From a virus: a stretch of 64,000 bases of DNA. The DNA lies in IMG/VR virus record IMGVR_UViG_3300042298_003052, positions 1 to 64,000 of that record. One strand, written 5' to 3'. The notes beneath the pieces are model-generated. The model made no database searches. It was not told the DNA's origin and saw only the letters and a program-made list of their open reading frames with translations. Both the position numbers and the translations under genes were made by a program. Positions 1-24,232 of the stretch are shown here, one piece after another (within the stretch, counting starts at the first letter, position 1; each line of letters begins with the position of its first letter).

Positions 1-35
1 TAGAGGGTGCCGGTTAGGCCGAGGGGGTAGAGCAT
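1..35 (-). CDS. Start of a further fibre-cluster gene (partial)
   Basis: An ATG at 35-33 opens a frame (MLYPLGLTGTL) that runs off the window edge. A good ribosome-binding sequence, AGGAG, lies about ten bases upstream on the minus strand, and the start follows the stop of the preceding gene (40-38) directly. The tail-fibre operon therefore continues past the window. Nothing can be said about the product from eleven residues. Confidence 0.5.
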   Translation of the reverse strand, partial: MLYPLGLTGTL

Positions 36-37
36 GG

Positions 38-256
38 CTAGCTACTCCTACGCTTGGCAAGTTGCCTAGCAGTGTAAGCTGGTCTCGATTCCCCAATATC
101 CTTATGAATGGGATCTTGCAGAGCACCCACATGGTTGACAGGAGAGGACGGATCCCAGAATCGCTCTAGGTCCGCTAAATCAGATAGCGCTTCAGTCAAG
201 GCAGCTTCGGGCAAACGAGTTAAAATTTCTTGGCATTGTTCACGAAGGTTTGTCAT
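38..256 (-). CDS. Small hypothetical protein of the tail-fibre cluster
   Basis: A 72-residue charged, leucine-rich protein, probably helical, with no family recognised. Its start overlaps the end of the preceding gene (stop at 253-255) by four bases, and the next gene starts just after its stop, so it is embedded in a translationally coupled run. Tail-fibre operons often carry small chaperones or linker proteins, but nothing in this sequence identifies it as one. Confidence 0.55.
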   Translation of the reverse strand: MTNLREQCQEILTRLPEAALTEALSDLADLERFWDPSSPVNHVGALQDPIHKDIGESRPAYTARQLAKRRSS

Positions 257-669
257 GGCAACGGCACCCGATCAACGGCAGACTGGGCATCAATGGCAGG
301 GTTGCCCTGATCGTCTTGTAGGGCAAATACTTTCCGCACGGTGCCATCCGGGTTGTATTGGGTGGCGGTGCTATTGGGGTAGTCGATCTTGAAGCGCCCC
401 AGGGTGAAGGCTTGGGCCAGGGCCAGGGTGCTGGCAATGTCTGGGTTCACAGCACCCACCACATCGACCCCAAGCAGCGCCGCTCCAGCATTGGCAAACC
501 AGCGCACTTCGCCGCCTGCATCGGGCAGCTCCACTACCGCCCGCCAGATGCCTCCGCCCAGGTGGGTAGGATTTTGCAAAGCACCCAGGGTGGTGCCGTC
601 GAATAGGCGATACTGCACCCCGCTGGTATAGCGGGAGCCCAGGATCGCTGCACTGGTGATAGTTTGCAT
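253..669 (-). CDS. Tail-fibre accessory protein, paralogue of the 5410-6171 gene
   Basis: This 138-residue protein is probably structural. Its N-terminal half resembles that of the 5410-6171 gene: both have a Y-x-[IL]-[FR]-x-x-DGTT stretch near residues 20-30, a Gly-rich turn, then an aromatic segment ending in an N-A-G motif (RWFANAG here, EWYLNNAG there), then an Ala/Leu-rich helix. No enzyme motif is visible. It shares one base with the end of the upstream gene at 669. The similarity was judged by eye, so the duplication is an inference; a role in fibre attachment or assembly is a guess from context. Confidence 0.6.
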   Translation of the reverse strand: MQTITSAAILGSRYTSGVQYRLFDGTTLGALQNPTHLGGGIWRAVVELPDAGGEVRWFANAGAALLGVDVVGAVNPDIASTLALAQAFTLGRFKIDYPNSTATQYNPDGTVRKVFALQDDQGNPAIDAQSAVDRVPLP

Positions 670-962
670 TAGCTCACCTCCACAGAAGAAATAATCCCGT
701 TGGTACGGGTGTAGCTGGTCGTTCGCGTCAACGACTGGGTATAGTCGTTGTCCACCCTGCCGGTGACGATCCCGTTTGTGCGGGTGAGGGTGATCCGATA
801 TAGCTCGGTGGTCTTGGCGCTATTGGTGTAATAGCTAATTCGCATGGTGGTAGCGGTAGGGTAGGTGACTTCCTTGTAGTGCAGCTCAGGCCGAAAGGCT
901 ACGGCGGGGACAATTGCCGTAGTTTGGAGTTGGCCGTTGGACAGGACAAGGGATTTAGACAT
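669..962 (-). CDS. Small fibre-cluster protein, paralogue of the 4111-4473 gene
   Basis: A 97-residue protein predicted to be mostly beta. It begins M-S-K-S-L-V-L-S-N and carries the phrase ELYRITLTRTNG; the 4111-4473 protein begins M-A-K-A-I-Q-L-V-N and carries ELYRKEITWGSG at the matching place, so the two are likely duplicates. Thr-Arg-Thr-Asn-Gly triplets recur near the C-terminus. The gene abuts its neighbours with one-base overlaps, indicating one leftward transcript. Function unknown; a structural role is inferred from position. Confidence 0.6.
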   Translation of the reverse strand: MSKSLVLSNGQLQTTAIVPAVAFRPELHYKEVTYPTATTMRISYYTNSAKTTELYRITLTRTNGIVTGRVDNDYTQSLTRTTSYTRTNGIISSVEVS

Positions 963-1657
963 TAGCTACTCGCAATGGCGGCGATCTCAGACTGGGCAAG
1001 AACGGTGGAATAGAGGCGGAAGTCGTCAATGTCAGCGTTAGCATTTTCAATGCTGAGAAAGTTATTTCCTGTGTAGGAAAAATTCCCCGTCAGGTCTGCT
1101 CGGTTGCTACCTACTGCCGTGCCATTTAAGTAAAGTTGAGGCGAGGAACCATTATATGTAAAGGCAAGATGGTTCCAATTTGTAATGGTAAAGCTTGAAT
1201 TATTGTGCCCGACATCACCTCGACCACTGGCAACAACAACGAACCCTCTGGCAACAGAAGAATTAAACCATAAATTAAACGTATAGTCTGCATCTGGTGT
1301 TGTTCTTTGCAGTCCGACAAATCCAGGACTTCCCCAAACTGGAGGAGAGGCACCACTGAGGCTTTTTATGCGCACCATAACGGTTCCACCGGTGGTCAGG
1401 TTCAATGCTGCATTAGCCGCTACAGTTGCCTTGTCGCTGCTATTAGTAAGCCTCAGGGCGTTGCCAGTGCCGTTGTAGCCAGTTACCCAGCTGTAGCCAG
1501 GGCCGGAGATTGTGGCATTTAACGCGGTCCCACCACTGCCAGCATTCGTTAAGCTGGTACCAGAGCCTTCGTTGAACTGATACCAGACCAATGGCGTCGG
1601 GCCGCTAGCCGTAGCGACGGGTGCAGCTAAGCCTTGCAGTGAGGGGATAAAGAACAT
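962..1657 (-). CDS. LamG / concanavalin-like domain fibre protein
   Basis: A 231-residue protein with the hallmarks of a LamG (jellyroll lectin-like) domain: an early WYQFNEGSGT stretch, a central WNHLAFTYNGSSPQLYLNGT block (residues about 165-190) and the closing DDFRLYSTVL strand near the C-terminus. Such domains bind glycans or proteins and are common as receptor-binding modules in phage fibres. It lies among fibre genes, overlapping both neighbours by one base. A second LamG domain occurs at the C-terminus of the 28916-30478 protein. Receptor binding is inferred from family and context. Confidence 0.75.
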   Translation of the reverse strand: MFFIPSLQGLAAPVATASGPTPLVWYQFNEGSGTSLTNAGSGGTALNATISGPGYSWVTGYNGTGNALRLTNSSDKATVAANAALNLTTGGTVMVRIKSLSGASPPVWGSPGFVGLQRTTPDADYTFNLWFNSSVARGFVVVASGRGDVGHNNSSFTITNWNHLAFTYNGSSPQLYLNGTAVGSNRADLTGNFSYTGNNFLSIENANADIDDFRLYSTVLAQSEIAAIASS

Positions 1658-2460
1658 TAGACCACCACCTGCCCACCGAGAATAAAAGTGTTTGAAGCGG
1701 TGGCGATCAAGGTTGCTACGGCATACTGGCCAGCGGTCTTGGTGGCTCCACCGAAAGCGTTGCGGGTTACCCCGGTCGCTGGGGTGAAAGTAATCTGGCC
1801 TGTCCCCTGCTGAATTATTGAGCAGGAAAAAGTGCTACTCAAGCTAGTTGGAATTGTTAGCGTAACAGCTGTATCTGAGGTAAAGGCAAGAATTGCACCA
1901 TTGTTGGCAGAGGCGAGAGTATGGGTCGCAGACGAAATAGAGGTGATTGCAGAAATTAAATGAAGCGGAGAGGTGACTGCACTTGTAGCAAAAAGATTCC
2001 CGACTGTGGCTGTCATCCCGTCAGCTAGAAATTTACTAATTTGCCATTCGTTGGTAGCAATCTTGAAAATAAGTCCCAAGCCTCGCGGGGGAATTCCGCC
2101 CAAGACAGAGCCCCGATAAGTAACAGTGCCGCCAAAATTGATTGGCGCGCTAGCGTTACTGTTGTATATCCAAATACGAGATCCAATCGGAAAATTGACT
2201 GAACTATCCAAGGGTACGGTAACCACACCGGCATCGCCTGTAATTAAGCGATCCACGTCGCTTAACGCCAGCGTTATTGACCCGCCGCCCGTGCTCTGGC
2301 CATTAATAAAACTGGCGGAAGAAAATTCCACCATAGCCGAAGTGCCCTTGACATAGAGCCGTCCGGCTGTCGGGTCAAAAGCGGGTTCAGCCGCATCCCA
2401 ATTAGCAGCGGTCGGCACCCCGCTGCCCTGGCGTAGCAAGATTTTGTACTTGCGCGGCAT
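1657..2460 (-). CDS. Tail-fibre protein with tropism-determinant-like N-terminus
   Basis: A 267-residue, Ser/Thr/Gly/Ala-rich protein. The N-terminus (KILLRQGSGVPTAANW, then EPAFDPTAGRLYVKG) has the short form 'lysine-arginine-strand, Gly/Ala turn, A-E-[PL]-A-F, Leu-Tyr' seen at the start of many fibre proteins and matched in the 2460-3866 gene. The rest is low-complexity beta, typical of trimeric fibre shafts. It lies between a LamG protein and a larger fibre protein in a run of one-base overlaps. Probably one of several alternative or successive fibre subunits. Confidence 0.65.
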   Translation of the reverse strand: MPRKYKILLRQGSGVPTAANWDAAEPAFDPTAGRLYVKGTSAMVEFSSASFINGQSTGGGSITLALSDVDRLITGDAGVVTVPLDSSVNFPIGSRIWIYNSNASAPINFGGTVTYRGSVLGGIPPRGLGLIFKIATNEWQISKFLADGMTATVGNLFATSAVTSPLHLISAITSISSATHTLASANNGAILAFTSDTAVTLTIPTSLSSTFSCSIIQQGTGQITFTPATGVTRNAFGGATKTAGQYAVATLIATASNTFILGGQVVV

Positions 2461-3866
2461 TAGAATGTGCCTCCATCAATGGTTATCGCCCAGGAAATCG
2501 TGTCGCTGGCCGCATCATAGGCCAGAATGCCATCAACACTGCCACCGCCATCTAGAGCGCTAATGGTGTCCAAGGTATTGGCAATTAGGACAGAGCCCTT
2601 GGGGACGGTGGTTAGGCCCGTACCGCCACGGGTAGCAGTAATGGCAGTAGCGCTCCAGGTGCCAGTGGTAATGCTGCCAACGGTCGTGATTGTGTTTTGC
2701 CCAACATAATCGCCAGCAATGTCAATGGTGTCTGCATTCACCACAATTCGACTGGCTGTGCCACCAACATCTAGGGTGTTGCCTGTCTTGGTTAGGCCAG
2801 CTCCGGCTACTACCTGCCCTGCCCCTGAGAATTGGGCAAAAGTTAAGCCAGTGGTGTCTATGGTAATCGGACTATTAGTAGTCAGCACCCAGCCTGAATC
2901 CGCGTTGACAGTACCTTCCTCAACAAAGGTAAAAGCACCTGCGGTAAGGTTGGTGGCACTGTTGGCATCGGCGGCGCGAGTCCACGCACTAGCAGCTACC
3001 ACGTAAATGCCGTTTTGGGAGCCAGTAGACTGGTTTTTAACCAGTACTCTGTCTCCAGCAATGACAGAAACTCCGTCAATCGTCTGAGGAGCACTTAAAG
3101 TAATGTTGGCTGTGGTAGCTGCGCGGACAGATTGTTTTACGTCTAACCCTTGGGAAATTGCATCCACATAGGCTTTCGTCGCCGCGTCTTGAGCGCCAGA
3201 GGGATCGGCTAAACCTGTTATTCGTTGGCTATTGAAAGCTACTGACACAGTGGGAGCTGCCATCTGGTCTAATCGACTGGTCCGCACCTGGGTGTCGAAG
3301 TCGCTGATCTTAGCCGCCGTCAATGCAGGAATATCCCCCGCCACCAAGGCCCTAAAAGTGGGCGCTCCAGCCGTGGCCGCAGGGGCGGCAAACACTTGGG
3401 CGGCTGTCTGGCTGGCTAGAGTGGCTGTCAGGGTGCCGCTGCCGGTCACTGGCGATCCAGAGACGGTGAACAGGTCAGGTAGCGATAGTGCCACGCTGGT
3501 GACGGTGCCACCCCCAACAGCACTAACGACTGATTTCACGTAGGCTGTAGTGGCTAACCGGGTAGAATCATCGCTGGAGGACTGGGTGACGCCTGTAGCG
3601 CTGTTAGTGCCGGTGCCAGAGAATACGCAGGGGCTATTAAAAGTTTTTATGCCAGAGACAGTCTGAGTTGTTCCCAGGGTGACATAGGCACCAGAGCCAG
3701 CAATGGCCTCGATAGTGGTAGCGGTTCCACCTGCTCCGCCAGTGCCTTTACCATAGTACAAAGTATTATCAGCCTCGTTGAAGGCTAGTTCAGCATTGGC
3801 TAGGCTGGAAGGCGCTCCAGCCGCACCAGTAGAAGCGCGTCGTTTGATCCTCAAAGTGTTAGGCAT
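2460..3866 (-). CDS. Major tail-fibre protein
   Basis: The largest fibre gene of the cluster, 468 residues. The N-terminus (TLRIKRRASTGAAG, NAELAFNEADNTLYYGKG) is the attachment-type motif shared by many phage fibres, including tropism determinants. The middle has VTSVALSLPDLFTVSGSPV and DPSGAQDAATKAYVD, phrases common in fibre proteins, followed by an Asp/Gly/Thr-rich shaft. No catalytic site for sugar cleavage is evident. It follows the small 3866-4114 gene by a one-base overlap. Confident as a fibre protein; which receptor it binds is unknown. Confidence 0.8.
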   Translation of the reverse strand: MPNTLRIKRRASTGAAGAPSSLANAELAFNEADNTLYYGKGTGGAGGTATTIEAIAGSGAYVTLGTTQTVSGIKTFNSPCVFSGTGTNSATGVTQSSSDDSTRLATTAYVKSVVSAVGGGTVTSVALSLPDLFTVSGSPVTGSGTLTATLASQTAAQVFAAPAATAGAPTFRALVAGDIPALTAAKISDFDTQVRTSRLDQMAAPTVSVAFNSQRITGLADPSGAQDAATKAYVDAISQGLDVKQSVRAATTANITLSAPQTIDGVSVIAGDRVLVKNQSTGSQNGIYVVAASAWTRAADANSATNLTAGAFTFVEEGTVNADSGWVLTTNSPITIDTTGLTFAQFSGAGQVVAGAGLTKTGNTLDVGGTASRIVVNADTIDIAGDYVGQNTITTVGSITTGTWSATAITATRGGTGLTTVPKGSVLIANTLDTISALDGGGSVDGILAYDAASDTISWAITIDGGTF

Positions 3867-4114
3867 TAGAAGTTACCTCCATCGGTAAGAGTTTCGGTGG
3901 TGTTCTGATCGGTGATAGTCAATTGTCCAGACTGCCAAACAGCGATGGAACCGTTAACAGGATTGGTGGTGGTAATTGCCAAGTTCGCTGGTAGCCCTAG
4001 GGCTGTTTTAAGCTGCGCTAGAGTGGCATAACCTAGACTACTGTCCGCGCTGGTGCCATTGCTGACAAGGGCATGGGTGGGGGTGGCAACTGCTTGCCGT
4101 AGTTGTTTTGTCAC
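3866..4114 (-). CDS. Small fibre-cluster protein (GTG start)
   Basis: An 82-residue protein. I choose the GTG at 4114-4112 over longer options because a strong GAGGAGG ribosome site lies eight bases upstream and because this GTG overlaps the stop (TGA, 4113-4111) of the previous gene, a coupling pattern used elsewhere in this genome. The sequence (QAVATPTHALVSNGTSADSS, then ATLAQLKTALGL) resembles the linker or repeat parts of fibre proteins. It may be a short fibre domain made as a separate chain. Function otherwise unknown. Confidence 0.55.
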   Translation of the reverse strand: MTKQLRQAVATPTHALVSNGTSADSSLGYATLAQLKTALGLPANLAITTTNPVNGSIAVWQSGQLTITDQNTTETLTDGGNF

Positions 4115-4473
4115 CAGGTCACCTCCTCGGTATCCCATAGAATAGGCAAAGTGCCCCAAAGTACTGGTACGTCAGTACATATCCCTACCTCTATCTGAAA
4201 TGCGCCGCCTACTTTGGCTAGCGTTCTACAGCGAGTGACGTTGTACACGTAATCGGTGTGCTTAGCCAGGGTAGGCAGGCCAGAGCCCCAGGTGATCTCC
4301 TTGCGGTATAGCTCCTGGCCTCTACCGCTGTCGCTGAACCAGCTAATCTGGGTGATCCGGCCATTGCCATCCCTGGTAATGTCACGGATACACGGATCAC
4401 GGCGCTTGGCCGCCGCTGATATAAAGTCAGCAGTGGCCAAAGCTGCGTTAACTAGCTGAATTGCCTTTGCCAT
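4111..4473 (-). CDS. Fibre-cluster protein, paralogue of the 669-962 gene
   Basis: A 120-residue protein whose first 80 residues follow the plan of the 669-962 product (see ELYRKEITWGSG and the M-[AS]-K-x-[IL]-x-L start). It has three cysteines, unusual in this cluster. Its last codons contain the GAGGAGG that serves as ribosome site for the following gene. The function is unknown; the duplication suggests each copy serves a separate fibre unit. Confidence 0.6.
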   Translation of the reverse strand: MAKAIQLVNAALATADFISAAAKRRDPCIRDITRDGNGRITQISWFSDSGRGQELYRKEITWGSGLPTLAKHTDYVYNVTRCRTLAKVGGAFQIEVGICTDVPVLWGTLPILWDTEEVTW

Positions 4474-4477
4474 GGCG

Positions 4478-4999
4478 CTACACCACTGTCAATTTGATCG
4501 GTCTATCATATTCAAAAAGAATCGACGTAGGCGAGAGGGCGTGGCCTAGGGGCTGGAGGAGCACATCCGGGCCAGCGGTGGCGGGTTGAGTAGATGAAAA
4601 GCCTCCGGGAGTCGTGGCGCTTAGGTACACTGGCCCTACTGATGCGCTAATGACACCAGTATTGCGGCCAGTCAAGTAAATCGTGGCGTTAGCAGGCGAT
4701 GTAACCGCTGTCAGGACATAGCCCCGTGCTTCTCGCCCATTGCTGGCGTCCGCTTTACGTGCCTTAACAGTGCCACTATCATCAAAGATATTGATGAAAT
4801 CGCCAGTGGCTAGGTTTTCGCTAGTCGGCAAGACTACTGTTTGCAGGTCAATACCGCTAGGCAGAAAGGTAGGGCTAAGTGTCCCGTTTGTATCAAGTGA
4901 AGGTATTTTATTGGCGTCGGCTACTCCAGCACTGGTAGTGACTGCTTGAGTAAGGATGGTGTTGCCGTTTACGACGGTCAGAAACTTATTTGTGCTCAT
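4478..4999 (-). CDS. Fibre or decoration-like structural protein
   Basis: A 173-residue beta-rich protein with a Thr/Ala-rich N-terminus and a C-terminal half holding short beta-strands (LTGRNTGVISASVGPVYLSA, then ALSPTSILFEYDRPI). The layout resembles its neighbour at 5003-5401, which has PIYLGANGQLTQTPP and AQPISPTVINLVQPVPI at the same places, so the pair look like duplicates. The style is that of virion decoration or fibre head domains. No catalytic motif. The start has TTAGGAGGTT just upstream on the minus strand, a strong ribosome site. Confidence 0.6.
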   Translation of the reverse strand: MSTNKFLTVVNGNTILTQAVTTSAGVADANKIPSLDTNGTLSPTFLPSGIDLQTVVLPTSENLATGDFINIFDDSGTVKARKADASNGREARGYVLTAVTSPANATIYLTGRNTGVISASVGPVYLSATTPGGFSSTQPATAGPDVLLQPLGHALSPTSILFEYDRPIKLTVV

Positions 5000-5002
5000 G
5001 GC

Positions 5003-5401
5003 TTAACCTCCTAAAAGAATGGGAACAGGTTGAACGAGGTTGATCACGGTCGGGGAAATAGGCTGGGCTAGCACTAGCAGAAAACCCGTTGTCGGTGGCG
5101 TCTGGGTAAGCTGGCCGTTAGCGCCCAGGTAGATAGGGCTACCCCTGGCCCAGTTCCACACCGCATCGGTGATTTCCCCTAGCCTGTAGGCAACCCCTTC
5201 GGTGCCTTGGCTGATCGCATAGGGCAAGATGCCAGCGACTCGGTAGGCATGGTCGGGGTTGCCACTGTCTGCATAGGCAAACTGGCCTGCATTGTCGAGG
5301 ATGACCGCCCTGAGGGCCGATAGGTTGATGCTGGCGGTGGCGGTGGTAACCGCATCGCCGAGGTCAGGGAGTAATGAGATTGCCTTGTAAATAACGCCCA
5401 T
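5003..5401 (-). CDS. Fibre or decoration-like structural protein, duplicate of neighbour
   Basis: A 132-residue protein similar in plan to the 4478-4999 product: a hydrophobic first half and a C-terminal strand pattern with a G-x-P-[IV]-Y-L core and a final hydrophobic-proline tail. It starts with ATG at 5401 behind an AGGAGCT ribosome site. The three-base gap to the next gene shows operon organisation. Likely a structural part of the fibre complex; the exact role is unknown. Confidence 0.6.
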   Translation of the reverse strand: MGVIYKAISLLPDLGDAVTTATASINLSALRAVILDNAGQFAYADSGNPDHAYRVAGILPYAISQGTEGVAYRLGEITDAVWNWARGSPIYLGANGQLTQTPPTTGFLLVLAQPISPTVINLVQPVPILLGG

Positions 5402-5409
5402 AGCTCCTC

Positions 5410-6171
5410 CTATAGCACCAATGCCGTAATGTCGTCAGCCTTGGCGTTGAGTGTATCCACACTCGCCTGACTAGCCTTGGCATCCAGGCTGGCCTGAGTC
5501 GCTAAGCCTGCCTGGATCTCGGTCACTGCACTAGCGGCAATAGCGTCGGCGTCAAATGCGTCAGTAGCAATAGCATTTGCCGTGATCACATTGTTGTTAA
5601 TGGTGCCTACGGTTATCGCCCCGGTGACACTACCTACGGCACCGGTGACACTGCCCACAGCACCAGTTACGCTACCGACTGATCCGGTAGTACTAAAAGT
5701 CTGGGAGCTGGCAAGGTTGAAACTGTCCTTATCCGTGAGTGCCCTGGTAGCATGGGTCCAGATTTGCGTAGTCGTGGGAATATCACCAACGGCTGCGGGG
5801 GCTGTTGGCAGGTTCGTGGTCTTGCTGCTGATGGCAGATAGCTGCGTATCCAGATTGGCGCTAGCCAGCCCCAGGGCAGCGCGGATGCCTGCCGCTTGGT
5901 CTGCTTGGTTGGGCGCAGGCTCAATCGCTACGGCACTCAGGAAAGTCCCCGACGAACCGGCATTGTTCAAGTACCACTCCAGCGTCCCTCCATCGTCAGG
6001 GGCGGTGATGCCACCATTCACTCGGTAATAGCCAGTAGCAGAAACCTCCGTTACCCCTGTGGTGGTAAAGGCTGTGGCAATGGTCGTGCCATCAACCGCA
6101 CGGATTTGGTAACCAACGCTTTGGCTAGCTCGGGTGGGGGCAACAAGGGCGGCGGGGAGAGTTTGGGTCAT
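5410..6171 (-). CDS. Fibre-cluster protein with a Gly-Ser-Val-Thr tandem repeat and helical tail
   Basis: This 253-residue protein has three parts: an N-terminal globular part similar to the 253-669 protein (residues 1-100), a tandem heptad G-[SA]-V-G-S-V-T around residues 165-190 encoded by 21-base repeats, and an Ala/Asp-rich C-terminus (residues 200-253) that looks like a trimeric coiled coil. Such a mix fits a fibre shaft or a fibre-to-baseplate connector. It ends in LNAKADDITALVL. The 253-669 protein looks like the same gene without the repeat and coil. Confidence 0.65.
   Translation of the reverse strand: MTQTLPAALVAPTRASQSVGYQIRAVDGTTIATAFTTTGVTEVSATGYYRVNGGITAPDDGGTLEWYLNNAGSSGTFLSAVAIEPAPNQADQAAGIRAALGLASANLDTQLSAISSKTTNLPTAPAAVGDIPTTTQIWTHATRALTDKDSFNLASSQTFSTTGSVGSVTGAVGSVTGAVGSVTGAITVGTINNNVITANAIATDAFDADAIAASAVTEIQAGLATQASLDAKASQASVDTLNAKADDITALVL
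5618..5680. repeat. Three 21-bp tandem repeats inside a fibre gene
   Basis: Three units of 21 bp (5618-5638, 5639-5659, 5660-5680), variants of GCACCGGTGACACTGCCCACA on the plus strand, encode the heptads G-[SA]-V-T-G-A-V and relatives. The first two differ at a handful of bases; the third has drifted further. In-frame tandem repeats of this kind allow the shaft to lengthen or shorten by slippage or recombination. Confidence 0.7.
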
Positions 6172-6491
6172 TATCTTAACCCTAGGCTTTTAAGGGTCTG
6201 AGATTGCGCTGCCTGCGCCTCGGCATCTTTTACCGCTTGCAGGAGTGCTGCAATAGCCGAGAAGGGCTCAGTTTGAAATTGCTCTGCAATAATCGCCCAA
6301 CCAGGGTTAGCAATTGCAGCGGCATTCGCGGCTTCCACGGATGGATAGAATTTGTCGATACCTGGAACTAAAGGCCCTGCTACTATTGCGCCTGAAACCG
6401 GGTCAGCAACAACATCGGACCAATACGCCTGAAGGGTTACCTTCCCCTCAGTTGGGGAAATATCGCATTGAAATCGGGATAATTGTTCCAT
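6171..6491 (-). CDS. Small fibre-cluster protein
   Basis: A 106-residue protein. I start it at the ATG at 6491-6489 (MEQLSRF), just after the stop of the upstream gene at 6497; a longer frame would lie inside that gene. The N-terminal half reads like a beta protein (TLQAYWSDVVADP) and the C-terminal half is an alanine-rich helix. It overlaps the next gene by one base. No family recognised; possibly a tail-fibre assembly factor given its place directly after a fibre gene. Confidence 0.55.
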   Translation of the reverse strand: MEQLSRFQCDISPTEGKVTLQAYWSDVVADPVSGAIVAGPLVPGIDKFYPSVEAANAAAIANPGWAIIAEQFQTEPFSAIAALLQAVKDAEAQAAQSQTLKSLGLR

Positions 6492-6496
6492 AGAAA

Positions 6497-7576
6497 TTAC
6501 CAAGTAGAAATAGCGACTCGTTTCCAAGCATTTGTAGCCGTGCAAACGTAGATATAGTCAGTGTCCCAGCGGATTTGCCCCGCTGTTCCCGTTGCCGCAG
6601 CACTAGCAGGAGTGCCAGATTGCACAGCTCCGAGACCGTTGATCTGGCCTCCTACATGCAGAGCACCTGCAATACCAGCACCACCTGCGGTAACTAGCGC
6701 CCCTGTCGTAGTGCTGGTACTTGCCGTTGTGGCAGTGCCGTTAATCTGCCCCCCTACATTGACTGCGCCCTGAGCACCTAACCCGCCGGCAACACGCAAC
6801 GCGCCTGTAGTGGTGCTAGTGCTTGCGCTTGTGCTTCTAATGTTTAACTCACCTTTTAAGCCAGCATTCCCACTTCCCAGAATGGAAAATAACAAGCTTG
6901 GTGAAGTTAAAGAACCGAGTTCTTGATAACTATTCCAAAATGCAAAACAAAGCAAATCATCGCGTAGCAATGTAGCGGTCTCATTTGTGTCTCTCGCGTT
7001 AAAATTTACTACACCAAGGTCAGCTGTAGCAGTAGGAGGATATAATCCAATAAACCCCAGGCATGACGCTTGGTTAATTTGATTTGGGTTGTTTTTAGCG
7101 GTGAAAAATGGCACGAAAGAATCGGATACAGCTGTGCCATTGCTAACATTAAAATATCCCGCCCCTTTTCTGAAATATAATCCATTACTGTAATTTGATT
7201 GATTATTAGGCAGATTAATATTTAATCCGGTTTCTACAAAATTTTGGCTTCTCAGATTAATATCTAGTTCATTGCCGATCACCGCCTTGCCCGTGCCATT
7301 TGGAGTTAAAGAGATATTGCCATTTGCACCCGAGGCAAATGTCAATGCCTCAGTTCCCGTGATTGAGCCGGTCTGGGTGCCAGTACCGCCACTAGCTACC
7401 GGAATAGGCAAAGCCGGGGCACCACTTAGGTTAGAGTAGGCAACTTGCTCAGCCTGCCATCGCCCAGCCGCCTGATTCCACACCAAGGCCTTCCCATTGT
7501 CACCAGATACCGGAGCGGTGCTTGATACGTTAGTTAAATCTTGTAGCTGCGAGGGGGACAGATACGCTGTTGGCAC
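6497..7576 (-). CDS. Tail-fibre protein
   Basis: A 359-residue fibre protein starting with GTG at 7576 in a TAGTG stop-start overlap with the upstream gene. The N-terminus has GKALVWNQAAGRWQAEQVAY and LPIPVASGGTGTQTG, common fibre phrases. The middle (TPNGTGKAVIGNELDINLR) and a twice-repeated S-T-T-T-G-A-L-x-x-A-G-G unit near residues 250-300 form a shaft, and the last residues (TAGQIRWDTDYIYVCTATNAW) are a beta C-terminal cap seen in cyanophage fibres. It probably forms trimers at the tail tip. Confidence 0.75.
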   Translation of the reverse strand: MPTAYLSPSQLQDLTNVSSTAPVSGDNGKALVWNQAAGRWQAEQVAYSNLSGAPALPIPVASGGTGTQTGSITGTEALTFASGANGNISLTPNGTGKAVIGNELDINLRSQNFVETGLNINLPNNQSNYSNGLYFRKGAGYFNVSNGTAVSDSFVPFFTAKNNPNQINQASCLGFIGLYPPTATADLGVVNFNARDTNETATLLRDDLLCFAFWNSYQELGSLTSPSLLFSILGSGNAGLKGELNIRSTSASTSTTTGALRVAGGLGAQGAVNVGGQINGTATTASTSTTTGALVTAGGAGIAGALHVGGQINGLGAVQSGTPASAAATGTAGQIRWDTDYIYVCTATNAWKRVAISTW

Positions 7577-7779
7577 TACTCCAGCCCTCCATTTAGTCCA
7601 AAGTTAGTCCAGCCACGGCACAGCCCCACCGCAACCCCGCTATAGTCAAGGGTTTCAGGCGTTGAATAGTTGCGGGGAGAGCAGATAATCAATAACATAG
7701 AGACCGATCTATATATAAAAGAGTTGCAATGTAGATCCATCAACATATCTAATTGTTTATCTACTTTGACACCGTTCAC
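7576..7779 (-). CDS. Small hypothetical protein upstream of the fibre gene
   Basis: Frame of up to 67 residues, first gene of the leftward fibre run. The stop (TAG) overlaps the GTG of the next gene and the GGAGGGCTGGAG before it would serve that gene. The start is unclear: the longest frame uses a GTG at 7779; an ATG at 7698 gives 40 residues. The end (GLCRGWTNFGLNGGLE) looks like real coding sequence, while the A+T-rich first third may be leader. Function unknown. Confidence 0.35.
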   Translation of the reverse strand: MNGVKVDKQLDMLMDLHCNSFIYRSVSMLLIICSPRNYSTPETLDYSGVAVGLCRGWTNFGLNGGLE

Positions 7780-8532: not shown

Positions 8533-9072
8533 TTAAGCATCTCCTAAAAATAAAATTTTTATAGGATTCAAAATGCGATCGCATATAATATGTGCCAGAT
8601 CGCTTAAAACACAAGAACCATACCAACATAGGATCATATATCCAACCTCATTAGGCAACCGGAGATCTCCCAAAATTACAGGTTGTACTAATAGGACATC
8701 TAAATTAAAGATCGCTAACAAACCCAATACAACAAACCAATAACCAATAAGGAACCTAACAAGAGTACCAAATACTAACGTGTGGCTGAACATACCACGA
8801 TGTCTGACATTTTTCGCATAGATACGCCAGTATATACCTAATAGACCTTTACGTGTAGGAATGTCCATGTCAGGACCAGCCCAACGCTCATGTATGCTGA
8901 ACTGTATAGGAGAAAGGAGAAGAGCTGTTATCCACCAAGGTTTAATAAGGTCTAATCTGTTATTTTCATAAAATATGTGTATCAGTGATATAAGTATAAC
9001 TACTAGACCTAGTGACAATCCTCTTGACACTATATTATTAAAACGAAGATGTTCTCTACGTCCAGTTTTCAC
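8533..9072 (-). CDS. DUF2227-like metal-binding membrane protein
   Basis: A 179-residue membrane protein with at least three hydrophobic segments. The motifs GPDMDIPTRKG, then WRIYAKNVRHRGMFSH, and a late DLAHIICD contain the spaced Asp/His residues characteristic of the DUF2227 (putative metal-binding) family common in cyanobacteria. Its start overlaps the end of the endolysin gene by four bases, placing it in the lysis operon. A metal-dependent hydrolase activity is suggested for the family but not proven; here it may be a lysis helper or simply a captured host membrane protein. Confidence 0.65.
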   Translation of the reverse strand: MKTGRREHLRFNNIVSRGLSLGLVVILISLIHIFYENNRLDLIKPWWITALLLSPIQFSIHERWAGPDMDIPTRKGLLGIYWRIYAKNVRHRGMFSHTLVFGTLVRFLIGYWFVVLGLLAIFNLDVLLVQPVILGDLRLPNEVGYMILCWYGSCVLSDLAHIICDRILNPIKILFLGDA

Positions 9073-9863
9073 TTTAGAACTCCATATTCAATAAACGCTT
9101 TTTCGACTAACGCTTCGTAGTTTCTAGCAATAGTCGCTATATGATGGGCGCGATCTTTCCCATTAACGACTCTCCTAGCGGAAACATAATCTCGTTGATC
9201 TCCAGATACATACTGAGGTAAAGATTTACCAGTAAACCAACCACCCATCATACCTTCAATTAACAAAGTAACACTAACGTCAGGACTAACTATAATATCA
9301 GGATTTTGAACCGCATTTACATTATAGATACTAGATATTTTTTTATAATTATTCTTTCCAGTTAACTGTACTAAACCTCTACCAATATATTTACAAGCGT
9401 CTTCTTTACTCAGATTACCCATGCGATTAACATAACCATTACCACCAGCTCTATTGGCGAAATAATCACAGTTTCCTATTTCTACCAATGTGGTAAAGTT
9501 CGCACTTTCATGTTGAGCTGTGGCTAATATATAAGATACTTGTCCAACATCTGTAATATTCAAATTGATCGCACCGTGGATGATAGCGGTAACAACTTCA
9601 GCTTTTCGTCCTATTTGGAAATTTACAGGTAAGCTTTTGTTAATAGTGTTATCCAGTGCTTCTTGAGTAATATTTTGGAGTGATGGTATATGTCGTATAA
9701 CAACCTCTGGTGTTTTTATATTTACCAAAGGTATAGAGACACTAGGAGTTGTTATATCGAACCCGTAGTAATAATAACTCTCAATTGTTTTATTGAGCGG
9801 TTGATGGAAACTAACTGTTAAAAGAATCGCTGGAAAGGACCACTTCAACAAAAATCTAATCAT
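9069..9863 (-). CDS. GH19-type endolysin with N-terminal membrane anchor
   Basis: This 264-residue protein should cut the glycan strands of host peptidoglycan at lysis. Residues 90-260 form a GH19 chitinase/lysozyme-like domain: AQHESANF carries the catalytic glutamate, and YIGRGLVQLTGKNNYKK is the conserved substrate-cleft block of phage GH19 lysozymes. Residues 1-20 are a hydrophobic helix without a clear cleavage site, suggesting a signal-anchor (SAR-like) export route. It overlaps by four bases the M23-type gene upstream, so the two cell-wall enzymes are made together. Confident in family; the export route is inferred. Confidence 0.85.
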   Translation of the reverse strand: MIRFLLKWSFPAILLTVSFHQPLNKTIESYYYYGFDITTPSVSIPLVNIKTPEVVIRHIPSLQNITQEALDNTINKSLPVNFQIGRKAEVVTAIIHGAINLNITDVGQVSYILATAQHESANFTTLVEIGNCDYFANRAGGNGYVNRMGNLSKEDACKYIGRGLVQLTGKNNYKKISSIYNVNAVQNPDIIVSPDVSVTLLIEGMMGGWFTGKSLPQYVSGDQRDYVSARRVVNGKDRAHHIATIARNYEALVEKAFIEYGVLK

Positions 9864-10474
9864 TGAAACAATACCGCTGTAAGATGACCTGTTTTAACTT
9901 TTACAAACATGAATCGTCCGTTTGCATCTTTAGCACGTAGTTGAAGATGTAAATGAGGACCAGTGCCGTTACCAGTATCACCTGTTTCAGCGATCTTCCA
10001 CCCTTTTTCATAACCACCACTTTTACAGGTGTCTTTCTTCAAATGTAAAAGCTGCCATAACATGTCAGCGTACCAAAACTCTGCGTAATAGCCGCCACCA
10101 TTACCATCGAATTTACAGACAACTTCTATATTATCTGGTGCATAAAGAGGTATTCCTATGGGAGTACCTACATCTACACCATTGTGATATTTAGAACAAC
10201 CTGGACAGGGTGACTTTCTAGGCCCCTGTAAACTTGTTACTTTATGAGTGCCAATAACTTGGCCTATAAATGGATCTGTAAGATCAAACGAAGGATTCTT
10301 TTTTTCTACTACAATCTGTTCTGTCGCGGTTTCATAATCTAAAGGGATAAGTATCTCCACATCACCGAATTTGGCATATCCATGATGAACCAATGATTCT
10401 ACTTGTCGGTTCACTGATGGCACTAGAACGATCGCACCACATACACCCCAAGTTACAAAGTGATTATTTATCAT
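9860..10474 (-). CDS. M23-type metallopeptidase, probable lysis protein
   Basis: A 204-residue protein with an N-terminal hydrophobic segment (VTWGVCGAIVLVPS) and an M23 (LytM) fold: the zinc ligands lie in HNGVDVG (residues about 108-114) and in the HLHLQ motif near residue 180. The family cleaves peptide cross-links in peptidoglycan. A CPGC pair sits just before the first zinc ligand. Paired with the GH19 enzyme downstream it would give both glycan and peptide cleavage. It overlaps the upstream gene by eleven bases. Confidence 0.8.
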   Translation of the reverse strand: MINNHFVTWGVCGAIVLVPSVNRQVESLVHHGYAKFGDVEILIPLDYETATEQIVVEKKNPSFDLTDPFIGQVIGTHKVTSLQGPRKSPCPGCSKYHNGVDVGTPIGIPLYAPDNIEVVCKFDGNGGGYYAEFWYADMLWQLLHLKKDTCKSGGYEKGWKIAETGDTGNGTGPHLHLQLRAKDANGRFMFVKVKTGHLTAVLFQ

Positions 10475-11780: not shown

Positions 11781-12815
11781 CTAAACGCTTCTATCCCATT
11801 CATCAAAAACGCCTCTAACTTGTTCCCATTTCCTCCCTCCTTCGATGTTGAACATTATGCTAGCGATCGTTCTACGATTGTGATGATCTTTTAATTGACA
11901 ATATCTTAGAAAAGCCTCCTTGTTGTTAACGTCAAGATCGTAAAAGTTATTTTGTTGCGATCGTTCTCGAATTGAACTCAACTGAGTTCTGATGTAATCT
12001 ATATCGTCAACAGTGATAGTAGCAACTGGTTTCGGATCCATTTCCGCTTCGCTTCCACTTATTTCCGCTCTGCTTCCACTTCGCTTCCAGTTGCTTCCGT
12101 TTATTTCCGGGTTGTTTCCGCTTTGCTTCCACTTATTTCCGGCTATTTCCACTTCATTTCCGCCCGTTTCCGCTCTGCTTCCGGTCGCTTCCGGGCCATT
12201 TCCGGGGCATTTCCACTCTGCTTCCGGGCCATTTCCGCTCATCGAAAATCGCGGAAGCGGTTGGGAAATGGGGGTTCCTGCCCACGGGGACGGTACGCTT
12301 CCGCCAGGAGGGACAGGTAGAGGATCAACAATCGTGTTTTGAGAAATTCGATCTTCTTCATATTGACCTAACCAATATTCTACTTGTGCGCGAGAAAAAT
12401 ATTTAACAGCACCATACCCTAAGCCAAGGGCAGCAACACAAACCAACGTTGTAGTTGTAAAACTGTCCTGACCTAGTTGAGGATATTCATTGACGATGTA
12501 GGAAGATTGAGAAGCTGCAGAGACAGTCTCAATCGCAATCTCTTGCTGTGGTGAACGTTTACGCATAGGCATAACGACACCGTTCTGAGAACATTGACCC
12601 GCCGCTTCCATCTCTCTATAGGCGTCGTATTGCCCATAACCAGGAACGTCATAGGAAGACGGTAGGTGCGTTATCAAATAGGAAGAACCATCCTCCAAAC
12701 GAATATACCATCCATTGTCCCCAGTATCGGACCCAACTGGGTACACTTGGGTACATTTGGGTGTGTATTCGATACTAGGATGCCCCGCAGGGGACATGTC
12801 TTGACTTCTATTCAT
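11781..12815 (-). CDS. Single-pass membrane protein with heptad-repeat linker
   Basis: A 344-residue protein of unknown function, with a strong AGGAGAAGG ribosome site. Residues 1-110 form a soluble N-terminal part; residues about 120-140 are a membrane helix (TTTTLVCVAALGLGYGAVKYF); residues about 190-260 are a repeat of seven residues with consensus x-G-[NS]-x-x-E-x; residues 265-344 are a charged helical C-terminal domain ending in RKWEQVRGVFDEWDRSV. The repeat DNA holds GGAA every 10-11 bases (listed separately). It could tether a DNA- or protein-binding domain to the membrane; that is speculation from layout. Confidence 0.6.
   Translation of the reverse strand: MNRSQDMSPAGHPSIEYTPKCTQVYPVGSDTGDNGWYIRLEDGSSYLITHLPSSYDVPGYGQYDAYREMEAAGQCSQNGVVMPMRKRSPQQEIAIETVSAASQSSYIVNEYPQLGQDSFTTTTLVCVAALGLGYGAVKYFSRAQVEYWLGQYEEDRISQNTIVDPLPVPPGGSVPSPWAGTPISQPLPRFSMSGNGPEAEWKCPGNGPEATGSRAETGGNEVEIAGNKWKQSGNNPEINGSNWKRSGSRAEISGSEAEMDPKPVATITVDDIDYIRTQLSSIRERSQQNNFYDLDVNNKEAFLRYCQLKDHHNRRTIASIMFNIEGGRKWEQVRGVFDEWDRSV
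12042..12236. repeat. Helically phased TTCC array (19 units)
   Basis: TTCC occurs at 12042, 12053, 12063, 12074, 12085, 12095, 12105, 12116, 12127, 12137, 12147, 12158, 12168, 12179, 12189, 12200, 12211, 12222 and 12233. All eighteen intervals are 10 or 11 bases, mean 10.6, the helical pitch of B-DNA. On the minus strand the array encodes a heptad (21 bases, two units each). Neighbouring bases vary (ACTTAT, GCTCTGC, GGGCCAT and others) while TTCC does not. Confidence 0.9.
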
Positions 12816-13218
12816 TGCTACCTTCTCCTAGTGCTAGTCTCGGAAACAGGCCATTTAGAGCTAATCGAGCATCAACTTTGCTACTGAAATCAATGTCGTT
12901 ATATACAGTGGGACGGTCGATCGCGATCGTTTGAATCTCAGGTGCCTGTAGCTTAGCTAATTCCTCAGCCAAGTAATGCGATCGTACATTGCCTGTTAAT
13001 ACTTGCTTTTCGTAGAACTTAGAAAACTTTTTAGCGTTATCTTGTTCGTGTGAAATGATCGCTGTGTAAAGCTTCTCGTAGTGCTGATCTGAGAGGGCTA
13101 GAGTAGCCTTCACCAGAGTAATGTCCGTACTGGTGTCATAAGTGGTTTCGCCTGTTTTAGGGGGTGTAACGGGCGTTTCCTGCTCTTCTTTTAGCTTATT
13201 GATTGGTTTCGCTGCCAT
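12808..13218 (-). CDS. Hypothetical protein
   Basis: A 136-residue hydrophilic protein with a disordered Lys/Glu/Pro-rich start, a central helical part (LALSDQHYEKLYTAIISHEQDNAKKFSKFY) and a C-terminal part with no recognised fold. It overlaps its neighbours on both sides (8 bases downstream, 28 upstream), so it is co-translated with the MerR-like protein. A role as partner of that regulator is possible but unproven. Confidence 0.55.
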   Translation of the reverse strand: MAAKPINKLKEEQETPVTPPKTGETTYDTSTDITLVKATLALSDQHYEKLYTAIISHEQDNAKKFSKFYEKQVLTGNVRSHYLAEELAKLQAPEIQTIAIDRPTVYNDIDFSSKVDARLALNGLFPRLALGEGSNE

Positions 13219-13490
13219 GACAAGAATAATTCCTCATAAAATTGAATCCGTCTGTTTCGTCTACCGTGTCTAGATCCTTTCTTCGCTTTTTCAGAAGAAA
13301 TAGCCCAAAAAGAAAGACATACGGCATCTTCAATTGTGTAAACTCTGACCTTGCTAGGGTCATAAACAGGTAAGTCAAGGATTTCCCTCATCCACCTAAA
13401 TAAGGTGGTTTTACTTACCCGTTTCTTTGTTTCTCGTTCTACAAACTGTTTTACCTCTCCTAGAGAAAGTATTAGCTCACTGTAGGTCAT
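13191..13490 (-). CDS. MerR-like small DNA-binding protein
   Basis: A 99-residue protein: SLGEVKQFVERETKKRVSKTTLFRWMREI (residues 9-38) reads as a helix-turn-helix followed by VYTIEDAVCLSFW, the wing-and-helix pattern of MerR-family or excisionase-type proteins. The basic C-terminus (KKGSRHGRRNRR) adds DNA contacts. First gene of the leftward lysis block and next to six AGGTGCCA sites, so it may regulate its own promoter. A TATAAT on the minus strand (13503-13498) puts the transcript start at about the ATG, so the mRNA may be leaderless. Confidence 0.65.
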   Translation of the reverse strand: MTYSELILSLGEVKQFVERETKKRVSKTTLFRWMREILDLPVYDPSKVRVYTIEDAVCLSFWAISSEKAKKGSRHGRRNRRIQFYEELFLSWQRNQSIS

Positions 13491-13497
13491 GTTAGAT

Positions 13498-13503
13498 ATT
13501 ATA
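13498..13503 (-). promoter_or_regulatory. -10 element of the leftward promoter
   Basis: TATAAT on the minus strand, ending seven bases before the ATG at 13490. There is no convincing -35 hexamer at 17 bp; an AGGTGCCATCAAT site (13528-13540) lies where activator or repressor contact would be expected. Confidence 0.45.
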
Positions 13504-13525
13504 CACCACTCAATATGTGTTTTCG

Positions 13526-13946
13526 AGAGGTGCCATCAATTGAAACGCTCACTATGTAAGCATTATAAGAATTGTATCATCCATCTAAGTAAGAGGTGCC
13601 ATCAATTTACATTTCTTTACATTTCTTTACATTGAAAAATAGTGAGTATAAGTGCGTATGATTAGTGGTACCTCTTTTAGGTGCCATCGTTCTTCAGTAT
13701 TTTTACTTATCGATAGCTGCATAGCGATCAATGGCACCTCCCTAAGGTGCCATCAATACAATGGTTCTTGATTATCTACGATGAGTATAAGTGCGTATGA
13801 TTAGTGGTACCTCTTTTAGGTGCCATTGATCGCCCGTATTTTTACTTATCGATAATTAGTTGCACCTTAAAATGGCGATATTAATATGACGATATTTTTA
13901 GTGAGTATAAGTGCGTACAATTGATGGTACCTCTCTAAGGTGCCAC
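13526..13946. repeat. Six AGGTGCCA operator-like sites in three long repeats
   Basis: AGGTGCCA occurs at 13528, 13594, 13679, 13745, 13818 and 13938. At 13732-13752 it forms a near-perfect dyad, TGGCACCT-5 bp-AGGTGCCA. Three further copies pair with GGTACCT as a near-palindrome inside a 45-bp direct repeat starting TGAGTATAAGTGCGTA at 13643, 13782 and 13902. A 19-bp element, GTATTTTTACTTATCGATA, follows the first two (13697-13715 and 13836-13854). These look like binding sites for a dimeric repressor. Confidence 0.8.
13607..13632. repeat. Short TTTACATTTC tandem repeat
   Basis: A ten-base unit, TTTACATTTC, is repeated about two and a half times directly after the second AGGTGCCATCAAT site. 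It is A+T-rich and may be a melting or protein-binding element. Confidence 0.6.
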
Positions 13947-14004
13947 TAATCGATGTTCATCTCTCAGGACGATCGCATTTTTAGAGCGATCATCGGTTAA
14001 ATCG

Positions 14005-14176
14005 TTCGATCAGGTCAGATTGATCTAATCCCTTTTTTCATTTTGACTAATCGATCAGGTCAAATTGAACCAATCGATTAGTCAAAACAATTTAACCGAT
14101 CACTTCTGAATTATCGATTAGACCAAATTGACCCATTCGATTAGACCAAATTGACCCATTCGATTGGTCAAAATGA
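14005..14176. repeat. Iteron array (23-bp units) and 15-bp dyad
   Basis: Two exact tandem 23-bp units starting TCGATTAGACCAAATTGACC lie at 14114-14136 and 14137-14159, followed by a partial third. To the left, 14041-14055 and 14073-14087 are a perfect 15-bp inverted repeat (TTTTGACTAATCGAT and complement) around another iteron core, and a diverged copy lies at 14005-14030. Bases 14051-14077 match 36606-36632 in the initiator gene at 26 of 27 positions. Iterons of this type bind a replication initiator. Confidence 0.85.
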
Positions 14177-14235
14177 ATTTAGATGATTGATCGCGATCGT
14201 TCTTCCATTTCGTTTGTCGATTAGTTCCTTAGTAT

Positions 14236-14383
14236 GTGGTTCCTGTGATAACCACTGTTAGTCCTCTCAGAATCGTTTTTAAGAGGCGCTAAAGGCAGTC
14301 GAGGTAATTCTTATCGTTAATTTGTTAATCAGGCTTACAGAGGGTTTAGAGGCGATATTTTCTGTTTCTACCCTCTTTTTTTT
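14236..14383 (+). ncRNA. Candidate structured small RNA
   Basis: Two hairpins follow each other: GTGGTT/AACCAC (14236-14255) and CCTCT/AGAGG (14263-14286). They precede a clear terminator. No promoter is obvious, and no open frame covers the stretch. It lies right next to the iterons, where plasmid-type replicons often carry a control or primer RNA. This is a structural suggestion only. Confidence 0.3.
14340..14383 (+). terminator. Rho-independent terminator
   Basis: GAGGGT (14340-14345) pairs with ACCCTC (14370-14375), extended by AGA/TCT with a small bulge, and is followed by eight T residues (14376-14383). It would end any rightward transcript made in the iteron region. Confidence 0.65.
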
Positions 14384-14389
14384 GTAGAT

Positions 14390-14445
14390 CGATCGCGATC
14401 GAATGAAATAGGAATGAAATAAGGACGATCGCGATCGTTTTTTTT
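14390..14445 (+). terminator. Palindromic hairpin with T-run
   Basis: The self-complementary 12-mer CGATCGCGATCG occurs at 14390-14401 and again at 14426-14437, followed by eight Ts. The two copies can pair with each other around a 24-base loop, giving a second possible terminator directly after the first. Confidence 0.4.
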
Positions 14446-14472
14446 ATATAATTTTCAGTGTTTATATATATC

Positions 14473-14725
14473 GACCCCATTCACATAGATGCTGTGTGTG
14501 TGCTGCTGTAGATCTCTCTATATTTCTCTTTTTTCTAAGTCCTTTTATGATCTTTCCCTCTTTGTTGCGAAAACCCGGAGCCTTGTATATAATCTAAGCC
14601 TCCGGGAAAACGAAACAAACCTCGAAAGCATTGATATATAAAGGTTATAGCAAATAGAATAATGAAAAATAGCACGAAAATAGGTGATAAGAGGGAACAC
14701 ACACAGCATCTATGTAAAGGGGGTC
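14473..14725. repeat. 28-bp inverted repeat flanking 197 bp
   Basis: The left arm 14473-14500 (GACCCC.TT.ACATAGATGC...) and the right arm 14698-14725 are reverse complements at 26 of 28 positions. The enclosed 197 bp is non-coding and contains a CCCGGAG/CTCCGGG dyad at 14574-14606. Confidence 0.85.
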
Positions 14726-14802
14726 AACCTATTGCTATATAAGGATTACAGCTAATTCTATAAAAAATTATATATATAAAAATAAAGGAAAAGTAATTAT
14801 AA

Positions 14803-14859
14803 ATGACGATCGCGATCTATCTAGAAACGGATATTAGAAATTACTCTATTACTACTTGA
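14803..14859 (+). CDS. Possible 18-codon leader peptide
   Basis: ATG at 14803 is preceded by AAAGGAAAAG and opens 18 codons ending at the TGA that overlaps the TTGACA promoter box. It has a plausible ribosome site but no other support and could be chance. Confidence 0.15.
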   Translation: MTIAIYLETDIRNYSITT

Positions 14860-14883
14860 CAATATATCGAATAAAGATATAAA
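14856..14883 (+). promoter_or_regulatory. Sigma-70-type promoter for the rightward block
   Basis: TTGACA (14856-14861), 16-bp spacer, TATAAA (14878-14883); transcription would begin near 14890, leaving a leader of about 25 bases before the ATG at 14916. The match to consensus is the best in the control region. Confidence 0.65.
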
Positions 14884-14915
14884 ATTAGTAATAATCAATA
14901 CTTTAGGTTTATCAA

Positions 14916-15116
14916 ATGAAAAAAGTTGTAAAAGAAATGAAGAGGGGTGCTTACAGACGGCTTGATAACGATTCTCCTAAGTCGTTTTACCAATTCTGTA
15001 TGACCGAAGACGAAAAAAAGGAACTTTACGATATTTCTTGCGAGATGGGTATTACTATGGCTGCTGTACTTCGTATTGGTATTGAGTTGGTTAAGAAGGA
15101 GCGGAAGACTAATTAG
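14916..15116 (+). CDS. Small ribbon-helix-helix-like regulator
   Basis: A 66-residue basic protein. KSFYQFCMTEDEKKELYDIS followed by MGITMAAVLRIGIELVKKE has the strand-helix-turn-helix layout of CopG/Arc-type DNA-binding proteins. It is the first gene after the TTGACA promoter and precedes two helicase genes, consistent with an early autoregulator. The fold is inferred from the residue pattern only. Confidence 0.55.
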   Translation: MKKVVKEMKRGAYRRLDNDSPKSFYQFCMTEDEKKELYDISCEMGITMAAVLRIGIELVKKERKTN

Positions 15117-23654: not shown

Positions 23655-24232
23655 TGTACACTACTATTTATTTACATGGTTCTCTACGAAAGAAATATGG
23701 TAAAGAATTTAGATGTGTAGCGCATAGCACCAAAGATTGTGTTAGATTTCTAGAAGTTAATTTCAAAGATTTCAGACAATTTATCCTAGATGAAACAGGA
23801 AAAGGTACATTCTTCAAAGTCAGACACGGAAATTATGAAATAGGAGAAGATGAACTATCAGATCCTATAGTAAAAGATAAAAGTGTTCATATTACAGCTT
23901 TGCCTAGTGGTGCTGGTAAAGTAGGAAAAATAATTCTTGGTACAGCTCTTATTGCTGGAGGATTGATATTCTCTGGGGGTTTATTAGGTCTGAGCGCTGT
24001 TCAATTAATCGTTACAGGTTCTTTATTACTTGTATCCGGCTTAATGGGACAAAAACCAAAAAACGACGCAAGTGCCGAGAATCAAAAATCTTTTATATTT
24101 TCCGGTGTTTCTAATACAGCAGAAATAGGACAGCGTATATATGTAGTATATGGCGTTATGCTAGCACCATCTATGGTACTATCTGCCACAGTGCGATCGT
24201 ACATCACAGCTACCAATGTAGGCGGATCGTGA
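23654..24232 (+). CDS. Lambda I-like tail assembly protein
   Basis: A 192-residue protein similar in plan to lambda gpI, which helps assemble the tail tip. The N-terminal 90 residues are ubiquitin-like (YLHGSLRKKYGKEF ... HITALPSGAG) and the middle has two glycine-rich hydrophobic helices (GKIILGTALIAGGLIFSGGLLG, in part) followed by a soluble tail. I use the ATG at 23654, overlapping the stop of the previous gene. It overlaps the J-like gene by one base, and gene order I-J-L agrees with lambda-like tails. Confidence 0.8.
   Translation: MYTTIYLHGSLRKKYGKEFRCVAHSTKDCVRFLEVNFKDFRQFILDETGKGTFFKVRHGNYEIGEDELSDPIVKDKSVHITALPSGAGKVGKIILGTALIAGGLIFSGGLLGLSAVQLIVTGSLLLVSGLMGQKPKNDASAENQKSFIFSGVSNTAEIGQRIYVVYGVMLAPSMVLSATVRSYITATNVGGS

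What the first reader, a model, noticed from the sequence alone, without database searches (positions are those of the whole stretch)
12042..12236. TTCC array with DNA-helix periodicity across 195 bp
Nineteen TTCC tetramers at intervals of only 10 or 11 bp (mean 10.6) put every copy on the same face of the helix. The array also encodes a protein heptad repeat, so two constraints act at once. The invariance of TTCC while neighbouring bases vary suggests selection on DNA, since synonymous GGN codons could break it.
Basis: partly seen in the sequence, partly recalled or inferred. Interest (0 to 1): 0.75.

Follow-up and report, generated by a model that had tools for sequence, protein, structure and literature searches.

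The report
Helix-phased GGAA array in phage gene
A cyanobacterial phage gene contains 19 copies of GGAA spaced one per DNA turn and kept letter for letter in all three reading frames, so the DNA itself, not only the protein, seems to be under selection, probably as a row of binding sites like those of phage replication origins.

Summary
Nineteen TTCC (GGAA on the coding strand) lie at 12042-12236 at gaps of 10 or 11 bp only (mean 10.61; phase coherence 0.95 at 10.5 bp). They fall inside a 344-aa minus-strand ORF of a cyanobacterial phage, in a part predicted as an unfolded linker. The "heptad" is only approximate: GGAA is read in all three frames (9, 7 and 3 copies). It is invariant (72/72 bases) while spacers keep the consensus at 72/119; at synonymous sites, 21/21 against 22/39. 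None of 3000 recodings of the same peptide exceeded a chain of 7. The wider motif is YGGAARYR, varying only by transitions. So a DNA-level constraint is likely. Extra curvature is not shown. No homologue reaching the array was found, so conservation between phages is untested. Scans of viral contigs gave 73 similar arrays, against 23 for the reversed tetramer and 5 for off-phase spacing. Where the host gene could be named it was mostly a phage replication initiator; a marine group carries conserved non-coding arrays beside a primase-helicase-like gene. Best reading: an iteron-like cis element overlapping a linker, possibly for replication or partition. The bound protein and the function are inferred, not shown.

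The parts
12042..12236 (-). array of 19 direct repeats, extended motif YGGAARYR on the minus strand, gaps 10/11 bp
11781..12815 (-). 344-aa ORF that carries the array; array codes for a low-complexity G/N/S/E/K-rich linker; no Pfam or PHROG match; single-sequence AlphaFold model has very low confidence (pLDDT 36), linker without structure, C-terminal helices
12253..12267 (+). two GGAA in opposite orientation, 11 bp apart, next to the array; significance not tested
13191..13490 (-). 99-aa small protein with weak MerR-type helix-turn-helix resemblance, first gene of the same gene run; candidate binder, speculative
   Evidence: Pfam MerR_1 E=0.13; Foldseek top hits MerR, RacA, GlnR, none significant
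12808..13218 (-). 136-aa ORF of unknown function between the MerR-like gene and the array gene
9069..10474 (-). downstream GH19 endolysin-like and M23 peptidase genes of the same gene run

Best explanation
The array is a cis-acting DNA element: a row of head-to-tail binding sites (core YGGAARYR) placed once per helical turn so that a protein can polymerise along one face of the DNA. It overlaps the coding region of a flexible linker in a 344-aa phage protein, where purine-rich DNA is open in the frame used and the amino-acid sequence matters little. By analogy with the other arrays found, the most likely role is in phage DNA replication or segregation (iteron-like), with local transcription control as the alternative. 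Shown: the sequence, phase, invariance of the core over synonymous sites and over three reading frames. Inferred: that a protein binds, which one, and what for.
For: Core 72/72 conserved, spacers 72/119 (P=3e-12); synonymous sites only 21/21 v 22/39 (P=2e-4); four-fold sites 15/15 v 4/10. Core kept although read in three frames as GN/GS, PE/AE/VE and WK. Flanking -1, +5, +6, +7 keep purine/pyrimidine class in 19/19 copies; 27 of 27 changes there are transitions against 7 of 20 in other spacer positions. Longest GGAA chain in 3000 synonymous recodings is 7. Phase R=0.95. Class evidence: GGAA at 10/11 bp, 73 stretches in viral contigs; reversed tetramer 23; GGAA at 13/14 bp 5. With GGAARYR (47 stretches), at least 12 of 22 same-strand ORFs match PHROG replication-initiation families, the array lying mostly at 0.35-0.5 of the gene; initiator matches also. 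Ten marine contigs hold a non-coding GCGGAARTR array next to a primase-helicase-like gene; across groups (43-66% identity between groups) the GGAA copies are kept with the same transition pattern.
Against: No homologue covering the array was found in the collections searched, so there is no between-phage conservation. Units are related by descent, so the P values overstate independence. The host gene is not a recognisable initiator, and the 5-bp GGAAR run that follows several initiator arrays is absent. The phage has other repeat families that could serve as origin or operators (13.6-14.2 kb and 36.6 kb). Initiator genes also turned up among the control-pattern hits, so they carry repeats in general.
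Confidence: 0.55

Rival explanations
1. A minisatellite-like tandem repeat: 10- and 11-bp units spread by unequal recombination or slippage inside a tolerant linker; GGAA looks invariant because the expansion is recent or because repeat homogenisation keeps it, with no function in DNA.
For: Two linked unit subfamilies (GGAAAT.. and GGAAGC..), repeated identical units (GGAAGCAGAGC twice, GGAAATAAGT twice); GGAA-rich tandem arrays of many kinds occur in unrelated bacteria; purine-rich repeats give hydrophilic linkers in any frame.
Against: Homogenisation would act on spacers as well, yet these differ at 40% of sites while the core differs at none; gaps of 9 or 12 never occur; off-phase arrays are about 15 times rarer in viral contigs.
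Confidence: 0.25
2. RNA-level element: the GGAA series in the mRNA is a string of GGA motifs that titrates an RNA-binding protein (CsrA-like) or stalls ribosomes.
For: GGAA is on the sense strand; the transcript is less structured than shuffled sequence (z=+2.4), leaving motifs accessible.
Against: Helical 10.5-bp phasing has no obvious use in unstructured RNA; CsrA sites usually sit in hairpin loops (own knowledge), none predicted; the marine arrays are non-coding; no Rfam match in 9-16 kb.
Confidence: 0.07
3. Selection on the protein only: a repeated G-[NS]-x-x-E linker.
For: The first residue of most units is Gly followed by Asn or Ser; linker-like composition.
Against: W-K and P/A/V-E alternate at the same place while GGAA is kept; 21 of 21 synonymous core sites kept, with rare codons (CCG 10%, GCG 14%, GTG 14%, AGC 12%) chosen.
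Confidence: 0.06
4. A packaging (pac-like) or dispersed nucleoid/partition site instead of a replication or regulatory element.
For: Rows of helix-phased sites are also used by terminases and by ParR-type centromere proteins (own knowledge).
Against: No terminase gene was found near the array; a search of the whole record with one terminase family hit only a helicase.
Confidence: 0.07

Closest known systems
oriLambda inside gene O, and iterons in phage replication initiator genes
   Same: Direct repeats forming a protein-binding array overlap the coding region of a phage gene (oriLambda within gene O: PMC6022878); many GGAA arrays found here lie in initiator genes
   Different: The 344-aa host gene has no initiator signature and sits beside lysis-like genes; lambda iterons are longer (own knowledge); the 5-bp GGAAR run is absent
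BldC-type direct-repeat operators (MerR-like protein, head-to-tail filament on DNA)
   Same: Variable number of direct repeats, head-to-tail, DNase hypersensitivity on one face (PMC5859096); a small MerR-like gene lies in the same gene run
   Different: BldC consensus is AATTXXXX(C), not GGAA; MerR resemblance of the 99-aa protein is weak; no binding data
ParR/parC-type centromeres
   Same: Short direct repeats about one helical turn apart (own knowledge)
   Different: Usually in a promoter region beside ParM/ParR genes, none recognised here
Cyanobacterial short tandemly repeated repetitive sequences
   Same: Short tandem units in cyanobacterial DNA, some in genes (own knowledge)
   Different: Those are 7-mers; a blastn search of 377 cyanobacterial genomes gave only short weak matches to this array

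Membership tests
Initiator-embedded phage replication origin | direct repeats of a conserved core at helical spacing | tested here: met
Initiator-embedded phage replication origin | repeats lie in or beside a replication initiator gene | tested here: not met
   344-aa ORF without Pfam/PHROG match; DnaB-like helicase is 25 kb away
Initiator-embedded phage replication origin | the 5-bp GGAAR run seen after several initiator arrays | tested here: not met
   no GGAAR run beside the array
Initiator-embedded phage replication origin | AT-rich unwinding element | not tested
   not examined quantitatively
Initiator-embedded phage replication origin | initiator binding and origin activity | not testable with these tools
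   needs footprinting and marker-frequency data
BldC-type direct-repeat operator | AATT-N4-C consensus | tested here: not met
   core is YGGAARYR
BldC-type direct-repeat operator | small MerR-like protein without effector domain encoded nearby | tested here: inconclusive
   Pfam E=0.13, below cut-off; model pLDDT 61, Foldseek E 0.29-0.76 to MerR/RacA/GlnR
Phased-bend (curved DNA) element | curvature above that of the same peptide recoded | tested here: not met
   6.0 v 4.6 +/- 1.3, 15% of recodings as high

The most novel reading that the evidence does not exclude
YGGAARYR rows at one site per helical turn are a recurrent phage cis element, reached in unrelated phages (initiator-embedded, primase-adjacent, and here in a gene of unknown function beside lysis-like genes), recognised by small DNA-binding proteins that polymerise along one face of the DNA; here the same bases also encode a flexible linker.
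Probability: 0.25. Interest if true: 0.75.

Novelty: new variant of a known kind. Interest (0 to 1): 0.5.

Why it matters
If true, a stretch that looks like a trivial protein repeat is a double-coded site whose DNA letters, not amino acids, are preserved in three reading frames. It gives a testable motif (YGGAARYR at 10/11 bp) that appears in other phages within initiator genes or next to a primase-helicase-like gene, and so may help to find replication or partition sites in phage metagenome contigs.

Tried and rejected
Homologue searches for the array gene in viral contigs, plasmids, phages and cyanobacterial genomes gave only an identical contig (L002), a 97% relative cut before the array (L003) and short weak matches. 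Neighbouring genes as bait found no syntenic divergent phage. A pattern search of 386 cyanobacterial genomes gave 7 with a short array, so this is not a common cyanobacterial repeat family. Planktothrix phage PaV-LD has no such array. No protein is shared between the array-bearing elements and the genes beside the window array. AlphaFold of the 344-aa protein was uninformative. Curvature rejected as main feature. Rfam: nothing in 9-16 kb. The antisense ORFs over the array (12013-12342 +) are a by-product of TTCC reading as F/P/S; not taken as genes.

Full report
What is there. The window is the first 64 kb of a 139,448-bp IMG/VR virus record. HIP1 sites (GCGATCGC) number 25 against 0.35 expected, which points to a cyanobacterial host. 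Tail proteins of the lambda J type, a minor tail protein and an endolysin show that it is a tailed phage. The array lies at 12042-12236 on the plus strand as TTCC and therefore as GGAA in the sense strand of ORF 11781-12815(-), 344 aa. The run of minus-strand genes starts at a 1.4-kb intergenic region (13490-14916) and reads: 99-aa MerR-like, 136 aa, 344 aa with the array, 334-aa membrane protein, 100 aa, M23 peptidase, GH19 endolysin.

Observation. The 19 copies and their 10/11 gaps are exact. No other tetramer reaches a chain above 5 in the array or above 3 elsewhere in the window, and 20,000 sequences of the same dinucleotide make-up gave at most 5. The phase coherence is 0.95 at 10.5 bp.

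Is the DNA constrained? Aligned on GGAA, the core is invariant at 72 of 72 bases and the spacers keep the consensus at 72 of 119 (P=3e-12). Among synonymous sites only, 21 of 21 against 22 of 39 (P=2e-4), and among four-fold sites 15 of 15 against 4 of 10 (P=0.001). Under the phage's codon use the chance that the same peptide keeps all 19 GGAA is 1e-14 if copies were independent, and 3000 recodings had a longest chain of 7. Units share descent, so these numbers overstate the evidence, but descent alone does not explain why only the core is unchanged. Around the core, positions -1, +5, +6 and +7 keep Y, R, Y, R in all 19 copies; all 27 changes there are transitions, against 7 of 20 in the other spacer positions. 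The motif is therefore YGGAARYR with 2-3 free bases between copies.

Curvature. A dinucleotide wedge model with parameters from memory gives more curvature than the window average but not significantly more than the same peptide recoded.

Related arrays elsewhere. Scans of viral contigs gave 73 stretches for GGAA at 10/11 bp, 23 for AAGG at 10/11 and 5 for GGAA at 13/14; these counts include near-identical contigs and 5-bp GGAAR repeats. Beyond the seeded part of 43 arrays without 5-bp periodicity, the next GGAA peaks at 9-11 bp. Scanning the ORFs that hold arrays, the named families were almost all replication proteins: seven of ten, at least nine of 40, and at least 12 of 22. There the iteron is mostly GGAARCA-N4, 11 bp, in the linker of initiators with an N-terminus of the MRIRTIKP type, and in several cases it is followed by a 5-bp GGAAR run. 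At least two of 15 control ORFs also matched initiators. Ten marine contigs hold a non-coding array GCGGAARTR between a primase-helicase-like gene (judged by eye from its sequence, not by a family search) and a conserved gene of about 200 aa; between groups the DNA is 43-66% identical, but the four phased GGAA and their R/T/R flanks are kept. Other hosts of mixed-frame 10/11 arrays are an RHH-like protein gene in L065 and in a Methanosarcina MAG (L104; by eye) and membrane proteins, one with a helix-turn-helix match (L070). No protein is shared between these elements and the genes beside the window array, so they are analogues, not homologues.

Mechanism. The best reading is an iteron-like row of sites for a protein that loads head-to-tail on one DNA face, overlapping a linker-coding stretch. 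OriLambda within gene O (PMC6022878) is the precedent for a coding-embedded array, and BldC (PMC5859096) for a small MerR-like protein that polymerises on direct repeats. The 99-aa MerR-like product in the same gene run is a candidate binder; its resemblance is weak, and the product of the array gene itself is the other candidate. It is not filed as an origin: the gene is not a recognised initiator, and other repeat families occur at 13.6-14.2 kb and just upstream of dnaB at 36.6 kb.

Limits. No homologue spans the array. L003 (97% aa identity, 91% DNA) ends 138 bp before it, about one short read, which could be an assembly break at a variable repeat, but this was not tested.

Noticed in passing
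window 14006-14163, 36567-36632; record G000 at 94.6 and 122.2-122.3 kb: Dispersed near-palindromic 20-bp sites TCGATYRGRYCAAATTGACC, tandem in places, at four or five sites of the phage record; look like repressor, ParB or origin sites.
   Followed up: partly
window 13490-14916: 1.4-kb divergent intergenic region with long repeats (GAGTATAAGTGCGTA...TTAGTGGTACCTCTTTTAGGTGCCAT, about three copies) and several inverted repeats.
   Followed up: no
L082, L031, L161, L280, L287, L291, L294, L301, L304, L311 and others: Phage replication initiator genes carry GGAARCA-N4 repeats in the linker; in several a 5-bp GGAAR run follows, a possible common origin layout.
   Followed up: partly
L279, L289, L293, L295, L296, L303, L312, L316, L274, L286: Marine viral contigs with a conserved non-coding GCGGAARTR array plus CCCCNTACCCC and TACTTCCGC beside a primase-helicase-like gene.
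   Followed up: partly
L065:3652-4389, L104:540-1277: RHH-like gene (L104 is a Methanosarcina MAG, L065 a viral contig) with GGAA arrays in its coding region, two of them in L104.
   Followed up: no
window 1-7600: GC 0.47-0.55 against 0.34-0.43 in the rest of the window; holds head-decoration/tail-fibre-like genes.
   Followed up: no
window 24229-26868: Central tail fibre J protein with an N-terminal PT-HINT domain.
   Followed up: no
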